DNA of 64,000 bases from Hydrogenophaga sp. PBL-H3 (GTDB lineage: Bacteria; Pseudomonadota; Gammaproteobacteria; Burkholderiales; Burkholderiaceae_C), in assembly GCF_010104355.1 (NCBI RefSeq), contig NZ_CP044972.1, positions 1,612,001 to 1,676,000 of the forward strand. Direction: 5' to 3'. The notes beneath the pieces were generated by a model, which saw only the letters and a list, made by a program, of their open reading frames with translations, ran no database searches and was not told the origin of the DNA. Below, piece after piece: positions 21,588-47,079 of this stretch. A program made the translations under genes and the position numbers. Positions within the stretch are counted from its first letter, which is position 1. Each line of letters starts with the position of its first letter.

Positions 21588-21631
21588 TCGTCCGTTCAGA
21601 CGATGCCAAGCCGCCCGCCGGCCGGCAAGAT
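21588..21631 (+). promoter_or_regulatory. Operator A and promoter of the acyl-CoA operon
   Basis: TCGTCCGTTCAGACGA (21588-21603) is one of six copies of an inverted repeat TCGTC-N6-GACGA. A -10-like CAAGAT follows at 21626-21631, exactly 22 bases after the operator, and no -35 hexamer is recognisable. The CoA-transferase ATG is 45 bases further on. Confidence 0.7.
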
Positions 21632-21675
21632 GGCCCGATGGATGCACCCCTCGGTGCCGATTCGGGAGCGCAAAC

Positions 21676-22773
21676 ATGGCGGGACCACTTGCAGGACTCA
21701 GGGTTGTTGAAATGGCCGGCATCGGGCCTGGGCCGTTTTGCGCCATGGTGCTGGCCGATCTGGGTGCCGAGGTCATTCGCGTGGCGCGTCCGGGTGCCGC
21801 GCTCGACCCCAACGACGTGCTCGCCCGCAGCCGCACCGTGCTGCATCTCGACCTGCGCGACCCGGCCTCGGTGCGGGAGGTGCTCGCGCTGGTGGAGCAC
21901 GCCGACGTGCTGATCGAAGGCTACCGCCCCGGCGTGATGGAGCGCCTGGGCCTGGGGCCCGACGTGTGCCTGGCGCGCCAGCCGCGCCTCATTTACGGCC
22001 GCATGACCGGCTGGGGCCAGCACGGCCCGCTCTCGCACGCGGCCGGGCACGACATCAACTACATCGCCATCAGCGGTGCGCTGCACGCCGTCGGCCGCTC
22101 GGGCTCGGCACCCGTGCCGCCGCTCAATTACGTGGGTGATTTCGGCGGCGGCGCCATGCTGCTGGCCGTGGGTGTGCTCAGCGCCTTGTTCGAGGCAACG
22201 CGCTCCGGGCGCGGGCAGGTGGTGGACGCCGCCATGACCGATGGCGCGGCGCTCATGTCGGCCATGATGTACGGCATGAAAGCCGCCGGGCAGTGGAGCA
22301 ACCAGCGCGGCGAAAACATGCTCGACGGAGGTGCCTTCTTCTACGACACCTACGCCTGCGCCGACGGCCGCTTTGTGGCCGTGGGTGCGATCGAGCCGCA
22401 GTTTTATGCGTTGCTGCGCGAGCGCTGCGGCATCGCCGACGACCCGGCCTTCGACGCCCAGATGGACCGCGACGCCTGGCCACTGCTCAAGCTGCGCCTG
22501 GCCGAGGTGTTCCGCACCCGCACGCGCGACGAGTGGTGTCTGCTGCTCGAAGGCTGCGACGCCTGCTTCGCCCCGGTGCTCGACTGGGACGAAGCGCCGC
22601 TGCACCCACACAACCAGGCACGCCAGACCTTCTGCGAACTCGACGGCGTGTTGCAGCCCGCACCCGCGCCACGCTTCACACGCACGCCACCGGGCGCCCC
22701 CGCGAGCAGCGCCACCGCCACTGCAGACGCTGTCCTGCAGCGCTGGCGTCAACCCGCGCTGGCCACGGCCTGA
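21676..22773 (+). CDS. CaiB/BaiF-family CoA-transferase (alpha-methylacyl-CoA racemase-like)
   Basis: 365 residues from the ATG preceded by GGGAG. The N-terminus [20 protein letters not shown] and the [12 protein letters not shown] segment with the catalytic Asp are diagnostic of class III CoA-transferases and AMACR. The length fits AMACR (about 360-380) better than the longer formyl/carnitine CoA-transferases. AMACR converts 2R- to 2S-methylacyl-CoA so that methyl-branched acids can enter beta-oxidation. It heads an operon with ACD, ECH and SDR genes under operator A. Confidence 0.85.
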
Positions 22774-22800
22774 ACCCCAGATCCACCGAACAGGAACGCC

Positions 22801-23949
22801 ATGACCCTGCAATTCCGCCGCTCCTGGAGCGACCCCGACCTCGACCAGTACCGCGACACCGTGGTGCGCTTCATCGAGGAAGAAATGCAACCCGCCGACG
22901 AGGCCGCGCGCCGCCAGGGCCACGTGGGCCACGAGCTCTGGCGCAAGGCCGGCCAGACCGGCCTGCTGTGCACCGACATCCCCGAACAATGGGGTGGCGC
23001 CGGCGGCGACTTCCGCCACGAAGCCGTGTTCTACGAAGAGATGGCGCGCCGCAGCCTCACCGGCATGAACGCCTCGGTGCACACCATCGTGGCGCACTAC
23101 CTGCTCAACCACGGGACCGACGAGCAGAGGCGGCGCTACCTGCCGCGTCTGGTGAGCGGTGAGTGCGTGGGTGCGATCGCCATGACCGAACCCGGCACCG
23201 GCTCCGACCTGCAAGGCATCCGCGCACGCGCCGAGCGCCGGGGCGATGGCTATGTCATCAACGGCTCCAAGACCTTCATCTCCAACGGCTTCCTCGCCGG
23301 CCTGGTGCTGGTGGTGGTGAAGACCGACCCCACGCAGGGTGCGCGCGGCACTTCCATCTTCATTGTCGAAACCGCCGACTGCCCCGGCTACCGCGTGGGC
23401 CGCGTGCTCGACAAGATGGGCCTGAAGGCGCAGGACACCTCCGAGCTGTTCTTCGACGACGTGTTCGTGGGCCCCGGGCAGCTGCTCGGTGGGCGCGAAG
23501 GGCAGGGCTTCTTCCAGCTCATGGCCGACCTGCCCTACGAGCGCCTGATCATCGGCGTGACCGCGTTGGCCGCCATGGAGGGCGCCTACCAGGCCACCCT
23601 GGACTACGTGCGCGAGCGCAAGGCCTTCGGCCAGACCGTGGCCGACTTCCAGAACACCCGCTTCAAGCTGGCCGAGATCGCCACCGAGATCACCGTGGGC
23701 CGCGCCTTCGTGGACCGCTGCGTGGAAGACCTGGTGGCCGGCCGGCTCGACACCGCCACCGCGTCCATGGCCAAGCTCTGGGGCTCCGAGGCGCAGGGCC
23801 GTGTGGTGGACGCTTGTGTGCAGCTGTTTGGCGGTTACGGCTACATGAACGAATATCTGATTGCCCGCATGTACACCGACGCGCGCATCCAGCGCATCTA
23901 CGGCGGCACCAGCGAGATCATGAAAGAAGTGATCTCGCGCGCGCTCTGA
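22801..23949 (+). CDS. Acyl-CoA dehydrogenase, long-chain (ACADL)-like
   Basis: 382 residues with the full family layout: N-terminal helices (1-120), the FAD/acyl-binding middle domain (IAMTEPGTGSDLQGI, VINGSKTFISNG) and the C-terminal helical domain. The catalytic Glu is at the long-chain/isovaleryl position (DLPYERLIIGV, about 250), whereas the medium-chain position reads YGGTSEI. The C-terminus VQLFGGYGYMNEYLIARMYT strongly recalls mammalian LCAD, which also accepts branched acyl-CoAs. It makes 2-enoyl-CoA in the first oxidation step. It is 27 bp behind the CoA-transferase, with a GGAA ribosome site. Confidence 0.9.
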   Translation: MTLQFRRSWSDPDLDQYRDTVVRFIEEEMQPADEAARRQGHVGHELWRKAGQTGLLCTDIPEQWGGAGGDFRHEAVFYEEMARRSLTGMNASVHTIVAHYLLNHGTDEQRRRYLPRLVSGECVGAIAMTEPGTGSDLQGIRARAERRGDGYVINGSKTFISNGFLAGLVLVVVKTDPTQGARGTSIFIVETADCPGYRVGRVLDKMGLKAQDTSELFFDDVFVGPGQLLGGREGQGFFQLMADLPYERLIIGVTALAAMEGAYQATLDYVRERKAFGQTVADFQNTRFKLAEIATEITVGRAFVDRCVEDLVAGRLDTATASMAKLWGSEAQGRVVDACVQLFGGYGYMNEYLIARMYTDARIQRIYGGTSEIMKEVISRAL

Positions 23950-23969
23950 TTTCTGCCCACGGAGACCAC

Positions 23970-24767
23970 ATGACCGACGACAACATCCTGCAGGTCGAGG
24001 AAGCGGGCGGCATCGCGCGCGTCACGCTCAACCGCCCACACCGGCTCAACGCGCTCAACCCCGCGCTGGCCACCGCACTGCGCGAGTATTTCCAGGGCCT
24101 GCAGCGCCGGCTGGCGGTGCGCGTGGTGATCCTGCAGGCGGCGGGCGCGCAGTTCTGCGCCGGGCTCGACCTCAAGGAGCAGGAGCCCGGCGACGCGCTC
24201 GGCACCGAGGCCATGATGGCCGTTCAGCACAGCATCCGCGACATCATGATCGCCATGCGGCGCTGCCCGCAGCCCGTCATCGGCGTCATCCAGGGCGCGG
24301 CCAGCGGCGGCGGCTTCGCGCTCGCCCTGGCCTGCGACGTGCGCCTGGCCACGCCCGACGCGCGCATGAACGCCTCATTCATCCGCATCGGCCTCACCGG
24401 CTGCGACATGGGTGTGAGCTACTTCCTGCCGCGCATGGTGGGCAGCTCGGTGGCGGCCGAATACCTGCTCACCGGCCGCTTCATGAACGCGCAGCGCGCG
24501 CTCGGTCTGGGCCTGTTCAGCCAGGTTGCGCCGCTGGATGAACTGCAGCGCGAAGCGCAGTCGCTGGCCGAGGACATGCTGCGCAACACACCACTGGGCC
24601 TGCGCCTGACCAAGGAAGGCCTGGGCCACGCCATCGACGCCGGCAGCCTGGAAGCCGTGATCGCCATGGAAGACCGCCAGCAGGTGCTGTGCACCCAGAG
24701 TGGCGACTTCCGCGAGGGCATGGCCGCCTTCCTCGAAAAACGCGCACCCGTGTACCGCAACACCTGA
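23970..24767 (+). CDS. Enoyl-CoA hydratase/isomerase family protein
   Basis: 265 residues from the ATG at 23970 (GGAG at a good distance). It has the crotonase fold with VTLNRPHRLNALNP, FCAGLDLKEQE and the oxyanion-hole segment AASGGGFALALACD. At the first catalytic Glu position (rat E144) the residue is Ala, and the second is replaced in SFIRIGLTGCDMGVSYFLPR, so it is probably not a canonical hydratase. It may be an isomerase, or may use another acid on a special substrate. It is the third gene of the operator-A operon. Confidence 0.85.
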   Translation: MTDDNILQVEEAGGIARVTLNRPHRLNALNPALATALREYFQGLQRRLAVRVVILQAAGAQFCAGLDLKEQEPGDALGTEAMMAVQHSIRDIMIAMRRCPQPVIGVIQGAASGGGFALALACDVRLATPDARMNASFIRIGLTGCDMGVSYFLPRMVGSSVAAEYLLTGRFMNAQRALGLGLFSQVAPLDELQREAQSLAEDMLRNTPLGLRLTKEGLGHAIDAGSLEAVIAMEDRQQVLCTQSGDFREGMAAFLEKRAPVYRNT

Positions 24768-24792
24768 ACGACCAACACAACGGAGACAAGCC

Positions 24793-25692
24793 ATGACGCT
24801 CGACGACCTGATCTACAAACCCGGCCTGCTCAGAGGCGACCGCATCCTCGTCACCGGTGGCGGCACCGGCCTGGGCCGTGTGATGAGCGAAGCCCTGCTC
24901 ATGCTGGGTGCCACGGTCTACATCTGCGGGCGGCGCGGCCCCGTGGTGGAGCAGACCGCCGAAGAACTGATGGCCGCGCACGCCCAGCACGGTGGGCGCG
25001 TGGTGCCGCTGGTGTGCGACATCCGCGACGACGCGGCGATCATGGCCATGCTCGACGCCATCTGGGCCGACGGCGGCGCGCTCACCGGCCTGATCAACAA
25101 CGCAGCGGGCAACTTCGTGAGCCGCACCGAAGACCTCTCGGCGCGCGCCTTCGACGCGATTGCCAACATCGTGTTTCGCGGCAGCTTCTACACCACGCTC
25201 GAATGCGGCAAGCGCTGGCTGGCCGAGGGCCGCAAGGCCTCGGTGGTGTCCATCCTCACCACCTGGGTCTGGAACGGTTCGCCCTACACCGTGCCCTCGG
25301 CCATGTCCAAGGCCGGCCTGCACGCCATGACACAGTCGCTCGCGGTGGAGTGGGGCGGTCGCGGCATCCGCTTCAACGCCATCGCGCCCGGGCTGTTCCC
25401 CACCGAAGGCATGAGCGCGCGCCTGAACCCCCAGGGCGGTGAACACAAGGTGGAGGGCAACCCGATGGGACGCAACGGCCAGATGCCCGAGCTCGCCAAC
25501 CTCGCGGTCTTCCTCATGGGGCCGGGCTCCGAGTACCTCACCGGCCAGACCATCGCCATCGACGGCGGCCAGTACCAGGCCACGGGCGGCAACTTCGCCA
25601 GCCTGGCCAGCATGACGGACGCCGACTGGCAAGCCGCGCGCACCAGCATCCAGCGCCGCAACGCCGCCGACAAGCAGCAGCGCGGTTCTTGA
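24793..25692 (+). CDS. SDR-family oxidoreductase, 2,4-dienoyl-CoA reductase-like
   Basis: 299 residues. The Rossmann motif TGGGTGLG (about 17-24), NNAAGNF, and the large-family signature SAMSKAGLHAMTQSLAVEWG are clear. The Tyr of the usual YxxxK is replaced (SPYTVPSAMSKAG gives SxxxK), as in peroxisomal and mitochondrial 2,4-dienoyl-CoA reductases. C-terminal RFNAIAPGLFPTEGMSARL and the LTGQTIAIDGGQY end also fit that group. It would reduce dienoyl-CoA from unsaturated substrates. It is the last gene of the operator-A operon, before a strong hairpin. Confidence 0.85.
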   Translation: MTLDDLIYKPGLLRGDRILVTGGGTGLGRVMSEALLMLGATVYICGRRGPVVEQTAEELMAAHAQHGGRVVPLVCDIRDDAAIMAMLDAIWADGGALTGLINNAAGNFVSRTEDLSARAFDAIANIVFRGSFYTTLECGKRWLAEGRKASVVSILTTWVWNGSPYTVPSAMSKAGLHAMTQSLAVEWGGRGIRFNAIAPGLFPTEGMSARLNPQGGEHKVEGNPMGRNGQMPELANLAVFLMGPGSEYLTGQTIAIDGGQYQATGGNFASLASMTDADWQAARTSIQRRNAADKQQRGS

Positions 25693-25719
25693 ACACCCCC
25701 CTGCGCCGCTGCGCGGCTT

Positions 25720-25757
25720 CCCCCCTCCCTTGCGCGCCTTCGGCGCTTGGAGGGGGG
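25720..25757. terminator. Strong hairpin between converging SDR and regulator genes
   Basis: CCCCCCTCC (25720-25728) pairs perfectly with GGAGGGGGG (25749-25757). The loop itself forms GCGCC-TTC-GGCGC around a stable TTCG tetraloop. It lies in the only gap between two convergent genes, so a bidirectional transcription stop is likely. The composition resembles intergenic repeats seen in Comamonadaceae. Confidence 0.55.
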
Positions 25758-25763
25758 ACGGCA

Positions 25764-25794
25764 CCAGAGGCCCGGCAAAGCCGGTTCCTCGGTG
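25764..25794. repeat. Intergenic copy of the 31-bp dispersed repeat
   Basis: Its reverse complement matches 13018-13048 at 28 of 31 bases. The core AGGCCCGGCAAAGCCGGTT contains the small palindrome CCGGC-AAA-GCCGG. It sits beside the terminator hairpin, before the end of the regulator gene. Confidence 0.55.
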
Positions 25795-25854
25795 CCCCTG
25801 GATGGCGCTGCTTCATGCGTCGCGAGTGGCGCGCACGGGAGGGGGTGTTTCCTG

Positions 25855-28566: not shown

Positions 28567-28619
28567 GGGTGGCGGTGAGCAGGCGGTCGGTCGGGGCAGC
28601 CGCATCCGGCGTTCGCCGG

Positions 28620-28691
28620 ACTGTGCCAGCAATGGACGGCGTGCAACCCGTCCATTCAGACGATTCGGTGACCCATTCTGCTCCGTACACT
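28620..28691. promoter_or_regulatory. Operator B with divergent promoters (regulator / tesB)
   Basis: The operator CCGTCCATTCAGACGA (28648-28663) matches the consensus except for one outer base. Rightward, TACACT (28686-28691) is a -10 exactly 22 bases away, serving the thioesterase. Leftward, CACAGT (minus strand, 28625-28620) lies at the same 22-base gap and would serve the regulator gene itself, giving autoregulation. A perfect 9-bp inverted repeat AATGGACGG/CCGTCCATT (28631-28639, 28648-28656) overlaps the operator's left half. Confidence 0.65.
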
Positions 28692-28749
28692 TTGCCGGAC
28701 AACCGCCGCGGCTGTCCCCCGCTTGTCAACAGCACCCCGCTCTCTCCGC

Positions 28750-29640
28750 ATGAAACCCGATACCTCCGCAGCCCCCACCGAACGCCGCGCCGCCCTGGCC
28801 GAACTCGTCGCCCAGCTCAGCCTGGAGCGGCTGGACGACAACCGCTTTCGCGGCGGCCATGTGGACATCGGCAGCCCCTCGGTGTTTGGCGGCCAGGTGC
28901 TGGGCCAGGCGCTGATGGCGGCCGCGCGCACGGTGGAGGCCCACGGTGCGCATTCGCTGCACGGCTACTTTCTGCGCGCGGGCGACAAGGCCGTGCCGAT
29001 CGACTACGAGGTGGACCGCGTGCGCGACGGCGCGAGCTTCACCATGCGCCGCGTGGTGGCGCTGCAGCACGGCAAGCCGATCTTCCACCTCTCGGCCTCG
29101 TTCCACGGGCGCGAAAGCGGCGTGGAGCACCAGCGCGCCATGCCTGAGGCACCGCCGCCCGAAGGCCTGCGCGACGAAAGCGAAGGCCGGCGCGAGCTGC
29201 GCCACCTGCTGCCACCGGTGGCGCTGGCGGTGGTGGACCAGGCGCGCGCGGTCGATATCCGCCCGGTGGACCCGCAGCACCTGCTGCACCCCGCCATCAC
29301 GCCGCCGCATGCGCAGACCTGGCTGCGCGCGCCCGGCGAGCTGCCCGACGACCCGCTGATCCACCAGGCGCTGCTGGCCTACGCGTCCGATTTCAGCCTG
29401 CTCGGCGTGGCCATGCGCCCGCACGGCCTGAACTTCATGCAACCGAAGGTGCAGGGCGTGAGCCTGGACCACGCCATGTGGTTCCACCGCGATTTCAGGT
29501 TCGACGACTGGCTGCTGTATGAGACCGACTCGCCCTCGGCCGCCGGTGCGCGCGGCTTCTGCCGTGGCAGCGTGTTCACGCGCGACGGTGTGCTGGTGGC
29601 TTCGGTGGCGCAAGAGGGCTTGATCCGGGTCCACGACTGA
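28750..29640 (+). CDS. tesB: Acyl-CoA thioesterase II
   Basis: 296 residues from the ATG at 28750 (a TTG at 28723 is possible; no clear ribosome site in either case). It has a double hot-dog fold: N-terminal FRGGHVDIGSPSVFGGQVLGQALMA-type opening, HSLHGYFLRAGD, then the second domain with the catalytic triad. The triad is Asp in SDFSLLG, Ser in VSLDHAMWFHRDF (Thr in E. coli) and Gln in VAQEGLIRV. It hydrolyses acyl-CoA to free acid and CoA, releasing CoA when intermediates accumulate. It is driven by operator B, divergent from the regulator. Confidence 0.9.
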   Translation: MKPDTSAAPTERRAALAELVAQLSLERLDDNRFRGGHVDIGSPSVFGGQVLGQALMAAARTVEAHGAHSLHGYFLRAGDKAVPIDYEVDRVRDGASFTMRRVVALQHGKPIFHLSASFHGRESGVEHQRAMPEAPPPEGLRDESEGRRELRHLLPPVALAVVDQARAVDIRPVDPQHLLHPAITPPHAQTWLRAPGELPDDPLIHQALLAYASDFSLLGVAMRPHGLNFMQPKVQGVSLDHAMWFHRDFRFDDWLLYETDSPSAAGARGFCRGSVFTRDGVLVASVAQEGLIRVHD

Positions 29641-29651
29641 GGGCCTGGTTT

Positions 29652-29695
29652 TCGTCGCTTCGGACGATGTGCCCGCCAGGGGCGCTGCCTAGACT
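29652..29695 (+). promoter_or_regulatory. Operator C and fadB promoter
   Basis: TCGTCGCTTCGGACGA (29652-29667) is followed after exactly 22 bases by the -10 TAGACT (29690-29695). The fadB GTG start lies 42 bases beyond. The site sits just after the tesB stop, so fadB has its own promoter. Confidence 0.7.
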
Positions 29696-29737: not shown

Positions 29738-31894
<2,157 letters not shown>

Positions 31895-31934
31895 ACCCCT
31901 CTCTTACCTTTTCCAAATCTCTGGAGTCTTTGCC

Positions 31935-36271: not shown

Positions 36272-36346
36272 GCGGGGCTCCTGGGCCTGGTTGTGGCCAC
36301 ATCATGGCCCAGGCAGGCCATGCCTGTCCATGCGCAGGCGGCTCCT

Positions 36347-37155: not shown

Positions 37156-37228
37156 AGTGTGCGCCGGGCGGGGCGTTTCAAAAATCGTCCGTTCCGACGA
37201 CGCCCCTGCCGGGGGGGCCGCCCAGAAT
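37156..37228. promoter_or_regulatory. Operator D with divergent promoters (enoyl-CoA hydratase / thiolase)
   Basis: The operator TCGTCCGTTCCGACGA (37185-37200) lies between divergent genes. Rightward, the -10 CAGAAT (37223-37228) begins exactly 22 bases past the operator and serves the thiolase gene. Leftward, CACACT on the minus strand (37161-37156) lies 23 bases away and gives a leader of about 26 bases before the hydratase ATG. Confidence 0.68.
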
Positions 37229-37263
37229 GCCCGCAACCCCATCAACCAACGAGATGCAGCCCC

Positions 37264-38442: not shown

Positions 38443-38455
38443 CGCCCGCCTTGCC

Positions 38456-39280
38456 ATGACCCCCCACAAAAGAGATTCCGGAGACAAGACAACAAATACC
38501 CCCCTGCTGCAGGTGCAGGGGGTCACCGTGCGCTTCGGCGGCATCGTGGCGCTGGACGGGGTGTCGTTCGACATCCGCCGCGGGGAGATCTGCGCGCTGA
38601 TCGGGCCCAACGGCGCTGGCAAGAGCACGCTGTTCAACTGCCTCTCGCGCCTGTACGAGTGCAACGCCGGCAGCATCGTGTTTGAAGGGCAGACCATCTC
38701 GCGCCTGCCGCGCCACCGCATGGCCGGCATCGGCATCGGCCGCACCTTTCAGAACCTCGCGCTGTTCCGATCCATGACCGTGAGGGACAACGTGCGCGTG
38801 GGCTGCCACAGCAAGCACCACGCGGGCATGCTGCGCAACGCCTTTCGCCTGCCGGGTGCGGCGCGCATCGAGGCCGAGGCGCAGGCGCGTGCCGAATCGC
38901 TGATTGATTTCCTGCAGCTCGGCGACGTGGCCGAACGTGTGGTGGCCGACCTGCCCTTTGGCACGCAGAAGCGGGTGGAGCTGGCGCGCGCGCTGGCCAG
39001 CGAGCCGCAGCTGCTGCTGCTCGACGAACCCGCCTGCGGTCTGAACCACGAAGAGCTGGAAGGCCTGGGCGACCTCATCCGCGACATCCGCGACCGCCTG
39101 GGCGTGACGGTGCTGCTGGTGGAGCACCACATGGGCCTGGTGATGAAGATTTCCGACCGCGTGGTGGCGCTGAACTTCGGCAAGAAGATCGCGCAGGGCA
39201 CGCCGGCCGAGGTGCGCGCCCACCCCGAGGTGATCCGCGCCTACCTGGGCGCCGACGAAGAAGAGGGAGCCACCGCATGA
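38456..39280 (+). CDS. livG: Branched-chain-type ABC transporter ATP-binding protein LivG
   Basis: 274 residues. Walker A GPNGAGKST (50-58), a signature variant LPFGTQKRVELAR, Walker B LLLLDEP (about 187-193) and LLVEHHMGLVMKISDRV are present. The long insert after GRTFQNLALF is typical of LivG rather than LivF. It powers uptake with LivF, LivH and LivM. The next gene overlaps by 4 bases (ATGA). The ligands of such importers in catabolic clusters are often aromatic or aliphatic carboxylates rather than amino acids. Confidence 0.92.
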   Translation: MTPHKRDSGDKTTNTPLLQVQGVTVRFGGIVALDGVSFDIRRGEICALIGPNGAGKSTLFNCLSRLYECNAGSIVFEGQTISRLPRHRMAGIGIGRTFQNLALFRSMTVRDNVRVGCHSKHHAGMLRNAFRLPGAARIEAEAQARAESLIDFLQLGDVAERVVADLPFGTQKRVELARALASEPQLLLLDEPACGLNHEELEGLGDLIRDIRDRLGVTVLLVEHHMGLVMKISDRVVALNFGKKIAQGTPAEVRAHPEVIRAYLGADEEEGATA

Positions 39281-39996
39281 CGACCAACCTGCTGGAAGTG
39301 CGCGGCCTGCGGGCCCGCTACGGCGCCACCCAGGTGCTGCAGGGGCTGGACCTGGACGTGGCCGAGGGCCAGGTCACCGCGCTGCTGGGCGCCAACGGCG
39401 CCGGCAAGACCACCACGCTGCGCGCGCTCTGCCGCTTCATGGTGCAGGCCAGCGGCTCGGTGACGCTGGCGGGCGAGCGCATCGACGGCCGCTCGACCGA
39501 ACAGATCGCCCAGCTCGGCGTGGGCCACGTGCCCGACGGGCGCGGCACCTTCATGGGCCTGAGCACCGAAGAAAACCTGCAGCTCGGCGCCTTCTCGCGC
39601 CGCACCCGCAGCGGCGTGGCCGACGACATGGAGCGCATCTACGGCTACTTTCCACGCCTGCGCGAGCGCGCCACGCAGCAGGCCGGCACGCTCTCGGGTG
39701 GTGAGCAGCAGATGCTGGCCATCGGCCGCGCGCTCATGGGCCGCCCGCGCCTGCTGCTGCTCGACGAGCCCTCGTTTGGTCTTGCGCCCCTGATCGTGAA
39801 AGACATCTTCGCGATCATGAAACGCATCAATCAGGAGGAGAAAGTCTCCATCCTGCTGGTGGAACAAAACGCCAAGCTCGCACTCGACCTGGCCGACACC
39901 GCCTACCTGCTGGAAACCGGGCGCGTGGTGCTCAGCGGCCCCTCGGCCGACATGCGCCAGAACGACGCGGTGCGCCGCGCCTACCTCGGTGAATAG
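39277..39996 (+). CDS. livF: Branched-chain-type ABC transporter ATP-binding protein LivF
   Basis: 239 residues, the LivF length. Walker A GANGAGKTT (about 37-45), signature LSGGEQQMLAIGRAL and Walker B LLLLDEPSFGLAP are complete, with VEQNAKLALDLADTAYLLETG at the end. Its start overlaps livG, and it is 12 bp before livH. Works as the heterodimeric partner of LivG. Confidence 0.93.
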   Translation: MTTNLLEVRGLRARYGATQVLQGLDLDVAEGQVTALLGANGAGKTTTLRALCRFMVQASGSVTLAGERIDGRSTEQIAQLGVGHVPDGRGTFMGLSTEENLQLGAFSRRTRSGVADDMERIYGYFPRLRERATQQAGTLSGGEQQMLAIGRALMGRPRLLLLDEPSFGLAPLIVKDIFAIMKRINQEEKVSILLVEQNAKLALDLADTAYLLETGRVVLSGPSADMRQNDAVRRAYLGE

Positions 39997-40008
39997 GACA
40001 ACCTTCCC

Positions 40009-40881
40009 ATGAACGAATTCCTGCACCAACTCCTCGCCGGTCTGGCCACCGGCGGCATCTACGCCAGCGTGGCGCTCGCGCTGGTGATGATCTACCAGGC
40101 CACGCACCACATCAATTTCGCCCAGGGCGAGATGGCGATGTTCTCCACCTTCATCGCCTGGTCGCTGATCCAGGCCGGCTTTCCGTACTGGGCGGCGTTT
40201 GCCATCACGGTGGTGCTGTCCTTCGTGCTCGCCGCAGCCATCGAGTTCGCGGTGATCCGGCCCATGCACGACGCGCCGGTGCTCTCGGTGGTGGTGGTCT
40301 TCATCGGTCTGCTGGTGATCTTCCACAGCCTGGCGGGTTTTCTGTTCGGCTACACCATCAAGCCTTTCCCGAGCCCGTTCCCGGCCGATGCCTGGTATGG
40401 CGGCAGCCTGATGTCGGCGCACGAGGTGGGCGCCATCGTGGTGGCGCTGGGCATGGTGGCGCTGCTCTTCATGTTTTTGCGCTTCACGCCGCTGGGCCTG
40501 GCCATGCGCGCCGCCGCGCAGAACGCTGCCTCGTCGCGGCTCGTGGGCATCAACGTGGGCCGGATGCTCATGCTGGGCTGGGGCCTGGCGGGGGCCATCG
40601 GTGCGGTGGCCGGGATGATGGTCGCGCCCGTGGTCTTTCTGGACCCGAACATGATGACCGGCGTGTTGCTCTACGCGTTTGCCGGCGCCCTCATCGGCGG
40701 CATCGACAACCCCATCGGCGCGGTGCTCGGCGGCTTCATCGTCGGCGTGCTGGAGAACCTGCTCGGCACCTACGTGGTGGGCACCGAGCTCAAGCTCTCG
40801 GTGGCGCTGGTGCTGATCATCGGCGTGCTCATCGTCAAGCCTTCCGGTCTGCTCGGCAAGACCATCGTCACCCGGGTCTGA
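40009..40881 (+). CDS. livH: Branched-chain-type ABC permease LivH
   Basis: 290 residues with about eight membrane spans. It opens with LLAGLATGGIYASVALALVM and the HHINFAQGEMAMF motif that marks LivH. AAAQNAASSRLVGINVGR in the cytoplasmic loop is the coupling segment to the ATPases. It forms the pore with LivM, encoded 3 bp downstream. Confidence 0.92.
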   Translation: MNEFLHQLLAGLATGGIYASVALALVMIYQATHHINFAQGEMAMFSTFIAWSLIQAGFPYWAAFAITVVLSFVLAAAIEFAVIRPMHDAPVLSVVVVFIGLLVIFHSLAGFLFGYTIKPFPSPFPADAWYGGSLMSAHEVGAIVVALGMVALLFMFLRFTPLGLAMRAAAQNAASSRLVGINVGRMLMLGWGLAGAIGAVAGMMVAPVVFLDPNMMTGVLLYAFAGALIGGIDNPIGAVLGGFIVGVLENLLGTYVVGTELKLSVALVLIIGVLIVKPSGLLGKTIVTRV

Positions 40882-40884
40882 ACC

Positions 40885-41904
40885 ATGTCTTCCAGCCATT
40901 CCGCCGTTCTGAATCCCGTGCGCTCCGCCACCCCCGTTCGCGCCGCGGCGCCACGCGCCACCTGGCCCTGGGTCGTGCTGCTGGTGTTGGTCGTGGCCGG
41001 CCTCACCTGGGTGCTCAAGGGCTACCAGCTGTTCCAGGGCACCATGGTGCTGTGTTACGCCATTGCGCTGCTCGGCCTGAACATCCTCACCGGCTACAAC
41101 GGCCAGATCTCGCTGGGTCACGGCGCTTTCTTCGCGCTGGGCGCCTACGCCGCCGCCATCGCCATGGAACACGGCGGCCTGCCGTACTGGGTGGCGGTGC
41201 CGGTGGCGGGCGTGGCCTGCCTGGTCATCGGTTATCTCTTTGGCCGGCCCGCGCTCAAGCTTGAAGGCCTTTACCTGGCACTGGCCACGTTTGCGCTGGC
41301 CGTGGCCATGCCGCAGTTGCTGAAATACAAGCACCTGGAGCAGTGGACCGGTGGTGTCGGCGGCATCGTGCTCATCAAGCCCGACGCGCCTTTCGGCCTG
41401 CCGCTCTCGCAAGACCAGTGGCTGTTTCTCTACGCGCTGGTGGTGGCGGTGGTCATGTTCGTGATCGGGCACAACCTGCTCTCCAGCGGCAGCGGCCGCG
41501 CCATGCGTGCCATTCGCGACCACGCGCTGGCCGCCGAGGCCATGGGCGTGGACAACCCGCACTACAAGTCCATGACCTTCGGCATCTCGGCCGCGTTCAC
41601 CGGCGTGGGTGGTGCGCTCTCGGCCATTGCGGTGCAGTTCGTCTCGCCCGATTCGTTCACGCTGTTCCTCTCGATCTCGCTGCTGGTGGGCGTGGTGGTG
41701 GGCGGCCTGGGCACGGTGTGGGGCGCGTTCTTCGGCGCGCTCTTCATCATGTTCGTGCCGAGTTTTGCCGAGAGCATTTCCAAGGCTGCGCCCTGGGCGG
41801 TGTACGGCGTGGTGCTGATCGCCATCATGTTCGCCATGCCGGGCGGCGTGGTGGGCCTGCTGCGCAGCACCAGCGCGCGCTGGAAACGCCGGGCGGCTCC
41901 ATGA
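40885..41904 (+). CDS. livM: Branched-chain-type ABC permease LivM
   Basis: 339 residues with about nine spans. It has GLNILTGYNGQISLGHGAFF (the LivM signature), GRPALKLEGLYLALATFALA and the coupling loop SGSGRAMRAIRDHALAAEAM. The stop overlaps the ATG of the next enoyl-CoA hydratase gene (ATGA), tying transport to catabolism. Confidence 0.92.
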   Translation: MSSSHSAVLNPVRSATPVRAAAPRATWPWVVLLVLVVAGLTWVLKGYQLFQGTMVLCYAIALLGLNILTGYNGQISLGHGAFFALGAYAAAIAMEHGGLPYWVAVPVAGVACLVIGYLFGRPALKLEGLYLALATFALAVAMPQLLKYKHLEQWTGGVGGIVLIKPDAPFGLPLSQDQWLFLYALVVAVVMFVIGHNLLSSGSGRAMRAIRDHALAAEAMGVDNPHYKSMTFGISAAFTGVGGALSAIAVQFVSPDSFTLFLSISLLVGVVVGGLGTVWGAFFGALFIMFVPSFAESISKAAPWAVYGVVLIAIMFAMPGGVVGLLRSTSARWKRRAAP

Positions 41905-42701
41905 GCGAAGAGACCGTGCTGGTGAGCGAGCGCCACGGCGCCGTGGCGTTGCTGCGCCTGAACATCCCCACGCGGCTGAACCCGCTCACCATGCCGCTGC
42001 AGCAGGCGCTGCGCACCGCGCTGGCCGAATTGCGCGAAGACCGCACGGTGCGCGCGCTGCTGCTCACCGGCACCGGCAAGGCCTTCTGCGTGGGTGCCGA
42101 TCTGGGCTCCATGTCACCGCCGGGCGACGGCAGCCTGGGTGCGCAGACTGCGGACGCGATGGAAGCGCTGTCGAACCGCCTCATCGAAGACCTGCGCACG
42201 CTTCCTTTCCCGGTGGTGAGCGCGGTCAACGGCGCGTGTGCCGGCGCCGGCGTGGGCGTGGCGCTGGCGGCCGACGTGGTGCTGGCCGCGCGCTCGGCGT
42301 ATTTCTACCTGCCCTTCATGCCGCGCCTGGGCATCGTGCCCGACCTGGGCACCACCTGGTTCCTGGAACGCAGCGTGGGCCGCGCGCGGGCGGTGGCCAT
42401 GTCGCTGCTGGGCGAGCGCCTGAGCGCCGAGCAGGCCGCACAGTGGGGCCTGGTATGGAGGTGCATCGACGATGCCGATCTGCCCGCGCAGGCGCTGGCG
42501 ATCGCACGACGCCTGGCCGCGCTGCCGGCGCACGCGGCGCAGGAGGTTCGTGCGGTGTATGAACTCGCTGGCCAGCAGACGCTGGTGGAGCAGATGCGCA
42601 GCGAAGCCGAACGCCAGCGCGAGCTGATCGACCGGCCCACGTTTGCCGAGGGCGTGCAGGCGTTTCTGGGCAAGCGCGAGCCGGTGTTCCCGCCACGCTG
42701 A
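41901..42701 (+). CDS. Enoyl-CoA hydratase/isomerase family protein (PaaG-like)
   Basis: 266 residues. Crotonase signature segments: LRLNIPTRLNPLTM, FCVGADLGSM and AGAGVGVALAADVVLAAR. Both canonical Glu positions are replaced, but RLGIVPDLGTTWFLERSVGR has the Asp typical of PaaG-type isomerases that shift double bonds. It is therefore more likely an isomerase than a hydratase. Last gene of the thiolase-liv operon, overlapping livM by 4 bases; operator E follows directly. Confidence 0.85.
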   Translation: MSEETVLVSERHGAVALLRLNIPTRLNPLTMPLQQALRTALAELREDRTVRALLLTGTGKAFCVGADLGSMSPPGDGSLGAQTADAMEALSNRLIEDLRTLPFPVVSAVNGACAGAGVGVALAADVVLAARSAYFYLPFMPRLGIVPDLGTTWFLERSVGRARAVAMSLLGERLSAEQAAQWGLVWRCIDDADLPAQALAIARRLAALPAHAAQEVRAVYELAGQQTLVEQMRSEAERQRELIDRPTFAEGVQAFLGKREPVFPPR

Positions 42702-42719
42702 CTTGTCGCGCCACCAATA

Positions 42720-42763
42720 TCGTCAGTTTCGACGATGCCCCGCGCAGGCCGCGTTCCTACGAT
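42720..42763 (+). promoter_or_regulatory. Operator E and promoter of the ABC binding protein gene
   Basis: TCGTCAGTTTCGACGA (42720-42735) stands 18 bases after the preceding stop. The -10 TACGAT (42758-42763) begins exactly 22 bases past it, and the binding-protein ATG lies about 42 bases further with a GGAGA ribosome site. Confidence 0.7.
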
Positions 42764-42805
42764 GAGGCCCGAGCCCCAGCCATCACCACCCAGACGGAGA
42801 CACAC

Positions 42806-44032
42806 ATGCAGAAGACCCACAACGCCGGCTTGCGCCGGTCCCTCCAGCTCGGTGCCAGCCTCGTGCTGGCCGCCCTGCTGCCCCTGTCGGCCCAGGCGCA
42901 GAAGCAGTACGACCCCGGCGCCACCGACAAGGAAATCAAGCTCGGCAACCTGGTGCCGTACTCGGGCCCGGCCTCGGCCTACGGCACCATCGGCAAGGCC
43001 ATGACGGCCTACTTCGAGAAGGTCAACGCCAGCGGTGGCGTGAATGGCCGGCGCATCAACTTCATCACCGCCGACGACGCCTACAACCCGGCCAAGTCGG
43101 TCGAGCAGACGCGCAAGCTGGTCGAGCAGGATGAGGTGCTGGCCATGGTGGGATCGCTGGGCACCTCGCACGGCATCGCGGTGCAGCGCTACATGAACGC
43201 GAAGAAGGTGCCGCAGCTCTTCGTGGCCACCGGCGCCACGCGCTTCGGCGACCCCAAGGCCTTCCCCTGGACCATGGGCTGGCAGCCAACCTACCAGGCC
43301 GAGGGCAAGGTCTACGCGCAGCACATCCTGCAGACCAACCCCAACGCCAAGATCGCCGTGCTGATGCAGAACGACGACTTCGGCAAGGACTTCCACAAGG
43401 GCTTCATGGACGCGCTGGGCGACAAGGCCAAGACCATGGTCGTGTCGTTCCAGACCTACGAGGTGACCGACCCGACCATTGACAGCCAGATGGTGTCGTT
43501 CAAGGCCTCGGGCGCCGACACCTTCTTCAACATCTCCACGCCCAAGTTCGCGGCCCAGGCCATCCGCAAGGCGGCCGAGATCGGCTGGAAGCCCGCGCAC
43601 TACGTCTCCAGTGTGTCGCAGTCGATGAACTCGGTGCTCAAGCCAGCCGGCTTCGAGAACTCCGTGGGCATCATCACCTCCACCTACCTGCTCGGCGCTG
43701 ACGACCCGGCCGGCAAGGGCAACAAGGACGTGGACGAGTACCTGTCGGTGATGAAGCAGTATTACCCCGCTGGCGACCCGTACGACACGCTCAACGTCAT
43801 CGGCTACGCCACCGCGGCCACCATCACGCAGATGCTCAAGCAGGCCGGCGACAACCTCACGCGCGAGAACGTGATGAAGCAGGCCGCCAACCTGAACTTC
43901 ACGCCACCCATGCTGTATCCGGGCATCGACATCAAGACCTCCCCGACGGACTACTATCCGATCGAGAAGAAGACGCTGCAGCGTTTCAACGGCAAGGCCT
44001 ACGAGTCGTTCGGCCCCATCTTCGGCGGCTGA
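42806..44032 (+). CDS. ABC transporter substrate-binding protein (LivJ/LivK-like)
   Basis: 408 residues. A signal peptide ends at AQA (about 32). A periplasmic binding protein type 1 fold follows: EIKLGNLVPYSGPASAYGTI, FEKVNASGGVNGRRINFITA and YNPAKSVEQTRKLVEQDEVL. It delivers the substrate to LivHMGF encoded just upstream. The family ligand range covers amino acids, amides, urea and aromatic or aliphatic carboxylates; this copy sits among acyl-CoA genes and before an acyl-CoA ligase, so a carboxylic acid is most likely. It has its own operator and promoter, as expected for the abundant binding protein. Confidence 0.92.
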   Translation: MQKTHNAGLRRSLQLGASLVLAALLPLSAQAQKQYDPGATDKEIKLGNLVPYSGPASAYGTIGKAMTAYFEKVNASGGVNGRRINFITADDAYNPAKSVEQTRKLVEQDEVLAMVGSLGTSHGIAVQRYMNAKKVPQLFVATGATRFGDPKAFPWTMGWQPTYQAEGKVYAQHILQTNPNAKIAVLMQNDDFGKDFHKGFMDALGDKAKTMVVSFQTYEVTDPTIDSQMVSFKASGADTFFNISTPKFAAQAIRKAAEIGWKPAHYVSSVSQSMNSVLKPAGFENSVGIITSTYLLGADDPAGKGNKDVDEYLSVMKQYYPAGDPYDTLNVIGYATAATITQMLKQAGDNLTRENVMKQAANLNFTPPMLYPGIDIKTSPTDYYPIEKKTLQRFNGKAYESFGPIFGG

Positions 44033-44044
44033 AGCCCACACACA

Positions 44045-44101
44045 CCCGCACGGCCGCCCTGGTGCTCCCACCGGGCAGTCGCTGCGGGTGAACTGTTTTT
44101 T
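44045..44101 (+). terminator. Possible partial terminator between binding protein and ligase genes
   Basis: CCCGCA (44045-44050) pairs with TGCGGG (44083-44088), enclosing an imperfect inner stem GCCCTGGTG/CACCGGGC. A T6 run follows at 44096-44101. Such hairpins after binding-protein genes often stabilise the upstream mRNA and reduce read-through. The stem-to-T distance is longer than ideal. Confidence 0.4.
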
Positions 44102-44116
44102 ACCAGGAGACATCCC

Positions 44117-45754
44117 ATGCACGGCCTGATGCAAGACCGCCCGCTGCTGATCTCGTCACTCATCGAGCACGCAGCCACCTTCCACCCCCACACCGAGATT
44201 GTTTCTCGCCTGCCCGAAGGCACGGTGCACCGCACCGACTGGCAGGGCGTGTGCCTGCGCTCGCGCCAGGTGGCCAACGCGCTCAAGACCCTGGGCATCC
44301 AGCAGGGAGACCGCGTGGGCACCCTGGCCTGGAACTCGTACCGCCACCTGGCGCTGTACTACGGCGTCTCGGGCAGTGGCGCGGTGCTGCACACGGTGAA
44401 CCCGCGCCTGTTTCCCGAGCAGATCGACTACATCGTCAACCACGCCGAAGATCAGGTGCTGTTCTTCGACACCACCTTCGCGCCGCTGGTGGAGCAGCTC
44501 GCTCCGCGCCTCAAATCGGTCAAGGCTTTCATCGCCATGACCGACCGCGCCCACATGCCGGCCATCAGCGTGCCCAACCTGATGTGCTTCGACGAGCTGC
44601 TGGACGCCCAGAGCACCGAATACACCTGGCCCGAGTTCGACGAGAAGAGCGCGTCGTCCCTCTGCTACACCTCGGGCACCACCGGCAACCCCAAGGGCGT
44701 GCTGTACTCGCACCGCTCGACGCTGCTGCACACGCTGATGGAACTGGCGCCCGACACCTTCGGCATCAGCTCGGCCGAGACGCTGATGCTGATCGTGCCC
44801 ATGTTCCATGCCAACGCCTGGGGCGCACCCTACGCGGCGGCCATGGTGGGCGCCAAGCTGGTGCTGCCTGGCCCGCATCTGGACGGCGAGAGCGTCTACA
44901 CGCTCATGCGCGACGAGAAGGTGACTTTTTCGCAGGGCGTGCCCACGGTCTGGATGATGCTGTTCCAGTACCTCGACAAGAATCCGCAGCTCGACCCGCG
45001 CACGCTCGGCGTCAAACGCATCGGCATTGGCGGCGCGGCGGTGTCGCGCTCGGTGCTGGAGCGCTTCGAGAACCAGTTCGGCGCCGAGGTGGTGCAGGGC
45101 TGGGGCATGACCGAGACCAGCCCGATCGGCGTGATCAGCAAGCTGCTGCCCAAGCACGCGGGCATCGACAAGGACGAGCTGGTGAAGATCAAGCTCAAGC
45201 AGGGCCGGGGCGTTTGGGGCGTGGACCTGAAGATCGTCGACGCAGACGGCAAGGCCTTGCCCTGGGACGGCGTGGCCTTCGGCAACCTCTATGTGCGCGG
45301 CCCCTGGATTGCCAGCGGCTACTACCGCGGTGAGGGCGGCTCGGTGCTCGATGAAGAAGGCTTCTTTCCCACCGGCGACGTGGCCACCATCGACCCCGAC
45401 GGTTACCTGCAGCTGGTGGACCGCGCCAAGGATGTGATCAAGTCGGGCGGCGAGTGGATCTCGTCGATCGACGTGGAGAACGCAGCGGCCTCGCACCCCG
45501 GCGTGTCCGAGTCGGCGGTGATCGGTGTCTCGCACCCCAAGTGGCAGGAGCGCCCGCTGTTGCTGGTGGTGAAGCGACCCGGTGCCAGCGTGGAGCCGCA
45601 AGACCTGCTCGACCACCTGGGCACACGCATCGCCAAGTGGTGGCTGCCCGACGAGGTGCTGTTCGTCGACGCCTTGCCCCACACGGCCACCGGCAAGTTG
45701 CTGAAAACCAAGTTGCGTGAGCAGTACCGCGAGCACAAGCTGCCCACGGCTTGA
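44117..45754 (+). CDS. alkK: Medium-chain acyl-CoA ligase, AlkK-like
   Basis: 545 residues, almost the length of AlkK of alkane-degrading Pseudomonas. The N-terminus (LISSLIEHAATFHPHTEIVS), the AMP-binding loop SLCYTSGTTGNPKGVLYSHR, FHANAWGAPYAAAMVGAKLV, GWGMTETSPIG, FFPTGDVATIDPDGYLQLVD and the C-terminal catalytic Lys in TATGKLLKTKLRE are all present and resemble AlkK as I remember it. It activates a free carboxylic acid to acyl-CoA with ATP. Following the binding protein by 84 bp, it would be the entry enzyme for the imported acid. Confidence 0.88.
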   Translation: MHGLMQDRPLLISSLIEHAATFHPHTEIVSRLPEGTVHRTDWQGVCLRSRQVANALKTLGIQQGDRVGTLAWNSYRHLALYYGVSGSGAVLHTVNPRLFPEQIDYIVNHAEDQVLFFDTTFAPLVEQLAPRLKSVKAFIAMTDRAHMPAISVPNLMCFDELLDAQSTEYTWPEFDEKSASSLCYTSGTTGNPKGVLYSHRSTLLHTLMELAPDTFGISSAETLMLIVPMFHANAWGAPYAAAMVGAKLVLPGPHLDGESVYTLMRDEKVTFSQGVPTVWMMLFQYLDKNPQLDPRTLGVKRIGIGGAAVSRSVLERFENQFGAEVVQGWGMTETSPIGVISKLLPKHAGIDKDELVKIKLKQGRGVWGVDLKIVDADGKALPWDGVAFGNLYVRGPWIASGYYRGEGGSVLDEEGFFPTGDVATIDPDGYLQLVDRAKDVIKSGGEWISSIDVENAAASHPGVSESAVIGVSHPKWQERPLLLVVKRPGASVEPQDLLDHLGTRIAKWWLPDEVLFVDALPHTATGKLLKTKLREQYREHKLPTA

Positions 45755-45861
45755 GCTGGTTGTCGCGTTGCCCGCTTCGCTCGCGGGTTTCGCGCTGACG
45801 CCGGGCGTGGTCCGCGTTCTCCGGCGCTCGCTCGCGGGCGCCTGCCCGGGGGCGCCGCCGC

Positions 45862-46093
45862 TGCTGCGTCAACACCGTGGTCGGCGCGCAGCCTCTGTGG
45901 CAACCGCGAATGGCGCCTGCGCCCGCGAACCCCACCCGACGTCGAGAGTGACGGGTGGGTACGCCTGCAGGGGAGTCTGACTTGCTGCTGGCGCACAAGG
46001 GTGCGACTGGGGTCGATGGTGGGGGCGACTGTGCGCAGGCGCCATTCGCGCTTGCCGCAGAGGTTGCGCGCCAGCCACGGCGTTGATGCGGTG
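45862..46093. repeat. Long imperfect inverted repeat in a 428-bp gene-free gap
   Basis: The gap 45755-46182 holds no supportable gene. Its main structure is an inverted repeat: 45883-45922 against 46033-46072 match at 37 of 40 positions after reverse complementing, and the outer 21 bases on each side (45862-45882, 46073-46093) still match at 14 of 21. The spacer between the inner arms is 110 bases. Together they could form a long stem. It may be a non-autonomous mobile element or two decayed inverted copies of an intergenic repeat, and it may also end transcription of the converging ligase and SDR genes. Confidence 0.65.
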
Positions 46094-46182
46094 ATGTATC
46101 GACTGCCCGGGCACTCGTCCGCGAGGTGCGCCGGAGCACGGGCGCCCACGCCAGCGGCCCTGAGCCAACGCAGGCATGACCT

Positions 46183-46983
46183 TCAAGCCCCCACCACCGC
46201 CGAAGCCCCGCCATCCACTGGCAGCAGCACCCCGGTGATGTGCTGGCCGGCGTCGGAGGCGAACAGCAGCACCGCGCCCTTGAGGCCTTCGTCGTCGCCG
46301 ATGCGGCGCAGCGGCACGCTCGCGACGATGGGGGCCAGCACGTCGGGCTTGAGCATGTGCTGTGCCATCTTGCTCGGGAACACGCCGGGCAGGATGGCGT
46401 TGACCGTGATGCCGTGCGGGCCCCACTCGCAGGCCAGCGCGCGCGTGAGGCTGGCCACCGCGCCCTTGCTCGCGTGGTAGGCCGCGGCCTGCATCGAGCG
46501 CGCCGTGCCGCCCAGCGCGGCCACCGAGGCGATGTTGACGATGCGGCCTTCGCCGCGCGGCAACATGCAGCGGCGCACCACCTCGCGCGTGAGCAGGAAG
46601 ACGCTGCGTGCGTTGAGGTCCATCACCTTGTCCCAGGCGTCCATGGGGTGGTCTTCGGCCGGCGCGCCCCAGGTGGCGCCGGCGTTGTTCACCAGAATGT
46701 CGATCTGGCCCAGCGTCGCCAGCGCGTGGTCGACCAGCGCGAGCACCTGCGCGTCGTCGCGGCCGTCGGCGGCGAACACGTCCACCGTGTGGCCGGCGGC
46801 GCGCAGCTCGGTGGCGGCATCCTCCAGGTCGCTTGCCTTGCGCGCGCTGATCAGCAGGTGCGCGCCGGCCTCGCCCAGCGCGTGCGCCAGCTGCAGGCCC
46901 AGGCCGCGCGAGCCGCCGGTGATGAGCGCGGTGCGGCCGCGCAGGTCGTGAAGTTGTTGAACGGTGCGGTGGGTGGTGCTCAC
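46183..46983 (-). CDS. SDR-family oxidoreductase
   Basis: 266 residues from a GTG at 46983 with AGGAG six bases before it; the frame stays open far upstream but without any start that respects operator F. Motifs: TGGSRGLGLQ (Rossmann), NNAGATWGAPAEDHP, catalytic Ser in VNIASVAALGG, YHASKGA (YxxxK) and DGGASAVVG end. NAD(P)-dependent alcohol/ketone oxidoreductase; next to the kinase and dehydrogenase pair it may reduce a 4-ketoacyl-CoA or oxidise a hydroxyl, the role taken by an oxidoreductase in levulinate catabolism. Confidence 0.85.
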   Translation of the reverse strand: MSTTHRTVQQLHDLRGRTALITGGSRGLGLQLAHALGEAGAHLLISARKASDLEDAATELRAAGHTVDVFAADGRDDAQVLALVDHALATLGQIDILVNNAGATWGAPAEDHPMDAWDKVMDLNARSVFLLTREVVRRCMLPRGEGRIVNIASVAALGGTARSMQAAAYHASKGAVASLTRALACEWGPHGITVNAILPGVFPSKMAQHMLKPDVLAPIVASVPLRRIGDDEGLKGAVLLFASDAGQHITGVLLPVDGGASAVVGA

Positions 46984-47006
46984 GTGGGTCTCCTGTGGTG
47001 GGTCCC

Positions 47007-47079
47007 AGACTAATTCCGGTGCATGCGGTGCCACATCGTCGGATCGGACGAATGCGGCGCGGCGGATTTCCTCCACCAT
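47007..47079. promoter_or_regulatory. Operator F with divergent promoters (SDR / kinase operon)
   Basis: The operator TCGTCGGATCGGACGA (47036-47051) lies between divergent genes. Rightward, CACCAT (47074-47079) starts exactly 22 bases after it. Leftward, the minus-strand -10 TAGTCT (47012-47007) is 23 bases away, leaving a short leader with the SDR ribosome site. Confidence 0.62.

What the first reader, a model, noticed from the sequence alone, without database searches (positions are those of the whole stretch)
21588..47051. Six copies of a 16-bp operator TCGTC-N6-GACGA define a regulon with fixed class II promoter geometry
The sequences at 21588, 28648 (one outer mismatch), 29652, 37185, 42720 and 47036 all fit TCGTC-N6-GACGA with a TTC-like centre. 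Every copy lies in an intergenic promoter region of the acyl-CoA cluster. Each is followed on the plus strand, after exactly 22 bases, by an nAnnnT hexamer: CAAGAT, TACACT, TAGACT, CAGAAT, TACGAT, CACCAT. The operator would then be centred near -42.5 with no -35 box, as for a LuxR-type class II activator. The only regulator in the cluster is the MalT-type LuxR protein (25855-28566). MalT relatives have few defined operators, so this is a rare sequence-level prediction of a full regulon: CoA-transferase operon, tesB, fadB, thiolase-liv operon, binding protein/ligase, and kinase operon.
Basis: partly seen in the sequence, partly recalled or inferred. Interest (0 to 1): 0.9.

Follow-up and report, generated by a model that had tools for sequence, protein, structure and literature searches.

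The report
Shared control switch for acyl-CoA genes
Six copies of a short mirror-image DNA sequence sit at a fixed distance from likely promoters in one acyl-CoA gene cluster of a Hydrogenophaga-like bacterium, and the same sequence recurs in relatives that carry a particular MalT-like regulator, so it is very probably that regulator's binding site.

Summary
In detail: five exact and one single-mismatch TCGTC-N6-GACGA, all intergenic, each with nAnnnT 22 nt downstream on the plus strand. The bare pattern is not enriched genome-wide (25 hits, control 30), but the refined TCGTCNNTTCNGACGA occurs three times, all in this cluster. In relatives the sites follow the same genes through rearrangements. 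The refined site is in 12 of 15 family genomes with a >=45%-identical regulator and 18 of 135 others. All 33 examined regulators with recognition helix T[VI]RTHLR have an exact intergenic site nearby; 0 of 14 with another helix do. A -10-like hexamer lies 22 or 23 nt away in 37 of 40 oriented sites, without a good -35. Corrections: spacing is 22 or 23; three sites also face minus-strand promoters (malT, hydratase/flavoprotein, SDR); the kinase-operon target is doubtful. Binding, transcript starts and inducer are untested; relatedness inflates the association tests.

The parts
21588..21603 (+). operator TCGTCCGTTCAGACGA, upstream of the CoA-transferase operon
   Evidence: a site lies upstream of the CoA-transferase gene in all 11 loci L046-L056 (in L048 a thiolase gene lies between)
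21626..21631 (+). predicted -10 CAAGAT, 22 nt after the operator
28648..28663 (.). operator CCGTCCATTCAGACGA (one outer mismatch) between malT (-) and tesB (+)
   Evidence: a one-mismatch site next to malT with the same outer change is seen in L046, L047, L049, L056, L088 and L093 (tesB is not next to it in all of them)
28686..28691 (+). predicted -10 TACACT for tesB
28620..28625 (-). -10-like CACAGT at 22 nt on the minus side, facing malT
29652..29667 (+). operator TCGTCGCTTCGGACGA upstream of fadB
29690..29695 (+). predicted -10 TAGACT
37185..37200 (.). operator TCGTCCGTTCCGACGA between enoyl-CoA hydratase (-) and thiolase-liv (+)
37223..37228 (+). predicted -10 CAGAAT for thiolase-liv
37156..37161 (-). 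-10-like CACACT at 23 nt on the minus side, facing the enoyl-CoA hydratase/flavoprotein genes; CACACT is also on that side in L169 (22 nt) and L170 (23 nt)
42720..42735 (+). operator TCGTCAGTTTCGACGA upstream of the binding-protein/ligase genes
42758..42763 (+). predicted -10 TACGAT
47036..47051 (.). operator TCGTCGGATCGGACGA between SDR (-) and the kinase operon (+)
47007..47012 (-). -10-like TAGTCT at 23 nt on the minus side, facing the SDR gene; this side also has the TG extension
   Evidence: TAGGCT (23 nt) and TAGCCT (22 nt) on the same side in L169 and L166
25855..28566 (-). MalT-type LuxR (LAL) regulator: C-terminal LuxR HTH with recognition helix TVRTHLR
21676..25692 (+). CoA-transferase III, acyl-CoA dehydrogenase, enoyl-CoA hydratase, SDR (start taken as the in-frame ATG at 21676; my caller put it at 21745)
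28750..29640 (+). TesB-type acyl-CoA thioesterase
29756..32717 (+). FadB-type protein and SDR
34973..37123 (-). flavoprotein monooxygenase-like gene and enoyl-CoA hydratase
37264..42701 (+). thiolase, livG/F/H/M-type transporter, enoyl-CoA hydratase
42806..45754 (+). periplasmic binding protein and acyl-CoA ligase
46183..46983 (-). SDR gene, likelier target of the 47036 operator
47128..51273 (+). APH-type kinase, acyl-CoA dehydrogenase, enoyl-CoA hydratase, NMO-type oxidoreductase; membership uncertain

Best explanation
TCGTC-N6-GACGA is the operator of the MalT-type LuxR (LAL) regulator at 25855-28566. A dimer of its C-terminal HTH would bind one 16-bp palindrome centred near -42.5/-43.5, next to sigma, and activate promoters that have a -10 but no good -35 (a class II activator). 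The operator is directional: AT-rich distal flank, WTC centre, TG on the promoter-proximal side. It controls an acyl-CoA (beta-oxidation-like) uptake and degradation regulon and probably the regulator's own gene. The inducer is unknown; a substrate of the pathway or its CoA ester is likely by analogy with other catabolic LAL regulators. Shown here: site conservation, placement, spacing, and co-occurrence with the regulator and its recognition helix. Inferred: binding, activation, transcript starts, inducer.
For: Sites lie upstream of the same kinds of gene in Hydrogenophaga, Variovorax, Ramlibacter and Limnohabitans despite rearrangements. Refined site in 12 of 15 family genomes with a >=45% regulator (11 of 14 without the window's own genome) v 18 of 135 others; >=3 sites in 7 of 15 v 0 of 135. 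Genus: 6 of 6 with a >=49% regulator v 7 of 61. 39 of 40 refined sites in regulator genomes outside called genes v 6 of 20 elsewhere, or 38 v 5 without a margin. 33 of 33 T[VI]RTHLR regulators have an exact intergenic site near, 0 of 14 with another helix; G161, G169 and G208 were tested after the helix pattern was seen (fetched in the same turn), and the out-of-family G449, G253, G350 were both found and tested after it; all agree. -10 at 22 in 28 and at 23 in 10 of 40, either in 37; mean over offsets 0-21 is 1.25%. TG on the promoter side 29 of 40 v 2 of 40 on the other. -35: 0 of 37 reach 5 of 6. No other regulator domain was found by Pfam or NCBIfam in the genes called between 20.4 and 51.3 kb (short uncalled ORFs were not scanned).
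Against: No binding or transcript data. Three of 15 regulator genomes (G079, G136, G018) lack the refined TTC form and have only the bare palindrome nearby; so do the 44% homologues of G161 and G169. G478's 53%-identical regulator (TVRSHLR) has no exact site in the 19.5 kb fetched, only a one-mismatch one. Five refined sites in four genomes without a close orthologue lie outside called genes (a sixth lies 19 bp inside one); a search at E <= 1e-10 found no homologue in G142, G117 and G081 and only distant ones in G118. The identity cuts (45%, 49%) were mine, set at gaps in the hit lists. Relatedness of the regulators inflates all association tests. -35 matches, though poor, are a little better than random (3 of 6 or more in 20 of 37 v about 34%).
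Confidence: 0.86

Rival explanations
1. The palindrome is bound by another activator, for example a CRP/FNR-type protein, whose sites also have the 5-N6-5 form and class II position; the MalT-type gene is merely a linked member of the regulon.
For: 5-N6-5 geometry and a position near -42 suit CRP-type class II promoters (recalled). A few refined sites outside called genes exist in genomes where no homologue was found at E <= 1e-10.
Against: Site presence follows the regulator and its recognition helix (33 of 33 v 0 of 14), also against loci with similar acyl-CoA neighbours but a different helix (G478b, G370). The refined site is in only 30 of 150 family genomes, which does not suit a global regulator; but the genome was not searched for CRP-type proteins.
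Confidence: 0.08
2. The palindrome is a repressor operator (TetR, GntR or similar).
For: Acyl-CoA genes in betaproteobacteria are often under such repressors (recalled).
Against: A fixed 22/23-nt distance upstream of the -10 (37 of 40), no overlap with the -10 and absence of a good -35 fit an activator; no such regulator was found in the scanned cluster genes.
Confidence: 0.04
3. Chance: GC-rich sequence yields such palindromes often.
For: The bare pattern is not enriched genome-wide (25 v 30 control).
Against: 5 of 5 exact window sites outside called genes v 18 of 20 coding elsewhere; recurrence at the same genes in other genera and fixed -10 distance.
Confidence: 0.01

Closest known systems
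AlkS of Pseudomonas putida GPo1 and Alcanivorax (LuxR/MalT-type activator of alkane genes)
   Same: MalT-type activator of a catabolic pathway that uses an inverted-repeat operator at its target promoter and at a promoter of its own gene, giving positive feedback (passages of PMC8784404).
   Different: The review gives a 20-bp inverted repeat for AlkS; here it is 16 bp with a promoter-side TG extension. I did not compare the sequences. Target genes and inducer differ.
MalT of Escherichia coli
   Same: NOD-type ATPase, MalT-like TPR and C-terminal LuxR HTH.
   Different: MalT boxes are short, asymmetric and used in arrays (recalled); here one palindrome per promoter as a rule. The NCBIfam MalT equivalog score is below its cut-off (323 v 537).
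LuxR-type quorum-sensing activators at class II promoters (lux box near -42.5)
   Same: Palindrome near -42.5 replacing the -35 (position recalled).
   Different: No autoinducer domain was found in the regulator; half-site differs (recalled).
CrbR of Pseudomonas (LuxR-HTH response regulator of acetate genes)
   Same: An imperfect inverted repeat needed for activation, not found where the system is absent (passages of PMC5715377).
   Different: Its listed sites read roughly GACY...GGTC, another half-site order and spacing; a response regulator, not a LAL.

Membership tests
MalT-type LuxR (LAL) regulators | C-terminal LuxR-type HTH | tested here: met
   PF00196 GerE 5.3e-17
MalT-type LuxR (LAL) regulators | MalT-like TPR region and N-terminal ATPase with Walker A | tested here: met
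   PF17874 1.1e-25; residues 28-422 align with MalT chain 8bob_C; APAGFGKTT in the translation; the nSTAND Pfam model is below its cut-off
MalT itself (NCBIfam NF003420 equivalog) | score above the equivalog cut-off | tested here: not met
   323 bits v 537
LuxR-type class II promoter | activator site at a fixed distance upstream of the -10, replacing the -35 | tested here: met
   37 of 40 at 22 or 23 nt; no -35 of 5 of 6 or better in 37; sequence-based only
LuxR-type class II promoter | mapped transcript start and activation by the regulator | not testable with these tools
   needs 5'-end mapping and mutants
AlkS operators | same half-site and 20-bp length | not tested
   AlkS operator letters not retrieved; length from PMC8784404 passages
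CRP/FNR class II sites | cognate CRP-type protein following the motif | not tested
   no CRP-type domain in the scanned cluster genes; the rest of the genome was not searched for one

The most novel reading that the evidence does not exclude
The recognition helix T[VI]RTHLR reads the TCGTC half-site, so a few helix residues predict the operator of a LAL regulator: a first piece of a sequence-readable DNA-binding code for this family across several Burkholderiales families. Relatives with TVRSHLR, TVKAHLR or TVKSHLR would use changed half-sites at the same promoter position (leads: TCATCGCTATGGACGA in G478, CCGCCCGAACGGACGA in G208 and TGGTCCGAACGGACCA in G370, each with a -10-like hexamer at 22 nt).
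Probability: 0.4. Interest if true: 0.65.

Novelty: new member of a known kind. Interest (0 to 1): 0.52.

Why it matters
Here the operator, its promoter geometry, its regulon and the matching recognition helix can be read from sequence beside some thirty regulators, giving a testable regulon and a candidate regulator-promoter pair. The kind of system, an activator on a palindrome near -42, is known.

Tried and rejected
Chance origin: rejected. An embedded -35 made by the conserved TG after the operator: considered because the TG lies 17 bp from the -10, but TG stays at +1/+2 after the operator in the 23-nt class too (7 of 9) and -35 matches are poor, so it is read as an operator extension; a weak -35 role is not excluded. 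Published precedent: in searches none of the titles and abstract starts listed names this operator or regulon; the exact IUPAC text is in 0 papers. Two papers were opened, for passages only; one search found 103 papers and listed 20. These cover open-licence PMC papers only, so absence from print is not shown. Substrate: NCBIfam puts the ligase above cut-off for 3-(methylthio)propionyl-CoA ligase and for two long-chain fatty-acid ligase subfamilies, and the thiolase above two generic thiolase models; no substrate follows.

Corrections and rows dropped. One search's printed tally reads 32 of 32 v 1 of 15 because the helix of G082 is split between two fetched pieces; one search shows TVRTHLR for it (L023), giving 33 of 33 v 0 of 14. 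The 14 comprise G208, G478a, G478b, G370 and 10 of the 17 family genomes whose best homologue was under 45%; the other 7 were not fetched in full (five of them have 4-6 kb loci, L041-L045, with no exact site), nor was G122's second homologue (45%). Near-identical downstream sequences were dropped (44 to 40 oriented sites); the 57 divergent sites were kept out of the spacing count; 39 of them carry a -10 on one side only, 11 on both, 7 on neither. My one-mismatch scan of relatives kept only sites with GTC...GAC intact. The intergenic/coding split first used different margins and was recounted under one rule; one search's fourth test used the earlier 39 of 40 v 5 of 20. The gene caller is my own codon-score script, trained on 18 window genes, so starts are approximate. 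No structure was predicted and no tree was built.
Full report
Observation. Five match TCGTC-N6-GACGA exactly; 28648 has CCGTC. All lie outside called genes, and on the plus strand each is followed after 22 nt by the hexamer quoted. The window is G000:C1:1612001-1676000 of a 4.8-Mb genome; the four closest named relatives of the regulator are in Hydrogenophaga records (92, 87, 85 and 83% identity).

Is it more than chance? The bare pattern is not rare in the whole genome: 25 exact places against 30 for the backwards control. Of the 20 outside the window, 18 fall inside called genes and 2 in stretches where no gene was called, while 5 of 5 in the window are outside genes. With the TTC centre (TCGTCNNTTCNGACGA) only 3 places remain, all in this cluster. 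With one mismatch 10 more places appear (12 rows, two places being listed on both strands): three are further window sites (28648, 42720, 47036), and the seven others are called coding.

Relatives. In the 11 loci found by the regulator the sites lie upstream of the same kinds of gene: CoA-transferase, tesB or fadB or SDR2, thiolase, and binding protein, even where gene order differs. The outer mismatch of the site beside malT recurs in L046, L047, L049 and L056, and in L088 and L093 of G122 and G069. In Variovorax (L048) a divergent gene pair has two operators; in the two Limnohabitans loci four operators precede binding protein, thiolase, fadB and CoA-transferase. In G069 and G011 sites far from the regulator, on other contigs or over 200 kb away, also stand beside acyl-CoA dehydrogenase, ligase or binding-protein homologues (four of the five places seen: L097, L098, L103, L104; not L105).

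Co-occurrence. In 150 genomes of the family, 15 have a homologue of at least 45% identity. The refined site is in 12 of these 15 (11 of 14 without the window's own genome) and in 18 of the other 135; three or more sites in 7 of 15 and 0 of 135. Within the genus, 6 of 67 genomes have a homologue of 49% or more and all six have at least two sites; 7 of the other 61 have any, and one of these has two; the three genomes with 38-44% homologues have none of the refined form. In the family's regulator genomes 39 of 40 refined sites lie outside called genes, elsewhere 6 of 20; without a margin at gene ends 38 of 40 and 5 of 20. These tests treat genomes as independent, which they are not, and the identity cuts were mine.

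Recognition helix. I compared the HTH helix of 47 regulators with the number of exact intergenic sites in the 8-40 kb held around each. All 33 with T[VI]RTHLR have at least one; none of the 14 with another helix does (G082 corrected, see Tried and rejected; Fisher 3e-12, not tree-corrected). Some of this was prediction. The helix alignment came before any motif scan of the 44% homologues of G161 and G169 (TIRTHLR; two sites each) and the 38% one of G208 (TVKAHLR; none), though their DNA was fetched in the same turn. Orthologues outside the family were found, fetched and scanned after it: G449, G253 and G350 (T[VI]RTHLR; 2, 4 and 1 sites), with G306 inside the family (3), against G478a (TVRSHLR), G478b (TVKTHLR) and G370 (TVKSHLR), which have none. 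G478b and G370 have CoA-transferase, ligase and acyl-CoA dehydrogenase homologues nearby too, so the neighbourhood alone does not bring the site. G478a, at 53% identity, is the one close homologue without an exact site; it has a one-mismatch site with a -10-like hexamer at 22 nt.

Promoter geometry. For sites with only one gene facing away within 400 bp, orientation was set by the gene, not by the hexamer. After removing near-identical sequences 40 remain. nAnnnT starts at 22 nt in 28 and at 23 nt in 10, one or the other in 37; the mean over offsets 0-21 is 1.25%. Leaving out the window and the Hydrogenophaga loci, 22 and 10 of 34. The hexamers match TATAAT at 3 (14 of 37) or 4 (23 of 37) of 6 positions; the best -35 at 16-18 bp spacing reaches 4 of 6 in 5 of 37 and never 5, slightly better than random letters. 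The operator is not symmetric in use: WTY centre forward in 31 of 40, TG after the promoter-proximal half in 29 of 40 against 2 of 40 for the mirror position, and an A/T-rich stretch of three to four bases on the far side. In divergent regions the centre points to the side with the -10 in 28 of 32 decidable cases.

Which genes. At 28648 the minus side has CACAGT at 22 nt facing malT, at 37185 CACACT at 23 nt facing the enoyl-CoA hydratase/flavoprotein genes, and at 47036 TAGTCT at 23 nt facing an SDR gene, there with the TG extension that the plus side lacks. In two Hydrogenophaga relatives (L189, L190) a second MalT-like regulator with helix TVKWH and four or three further genes stand between the 47036-like site and the kinase operon, and the plus side has no -10 at 22 or 23. 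So the SDR is the likelier target, and the kinase operon of this genome may have come next to the site by loss of those genes (inference; only these two relatives were looked at).

Mechanism. The best reading is class II activation by the MalT-type protein on a single palindrome near -42.5/-43.5. Sequence shows the operator, its placement and its tie to the regulator; binding, activation, starts and inducer are inferred. The nearest published analogue that I read about is AlkS, a LuxR/MalT-type activator with an inverted repeat at its target promoter and at one of its own (passages of PMC8784404).

Novelty. I found no report of this operator or regulon in the searches named in Tried and rejected, which cover open-licence PMC text only and were judged from listings. 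The kind of system is known, the operator and regulon appear new, and the helix-operator match across families is the most interesting part.

Noticed in passing
window 32819-34758 (-): A two-gene island inside the acyl-CoA cluster matches Septu defence proteins: HNH protein PtuB (8e-76) and ATPase PtuA (4e-166) in PADLOC.
   Followed up: partly
L189 1009-3705, L190 1120-3816: In two Hydrogenophaga relatives a second MalT-like regulator (helix TVKWH) is divergent from the SDR gene at the 47036-like operator; it is not at that place in this window. Possible regulatory cascade.
   Followed up: partly
L188 2983; L153 11752; L185 13235: Near-miss palindromes with a -10-like hexamer at 22 nt near homologues with other helices; could be changed operators or chance.
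   Followed up: no
L122 6640 and L123 7341 (G142): Two refined sites outside called genes in a genome where no homologue of the regulator was found at E <= 1e-10.
   Followed up: no
window 17255-19662 (+): Three neighbouring proteins with PEP-CTERM signals, one with a lamin-tail domain.
   Followed up: no
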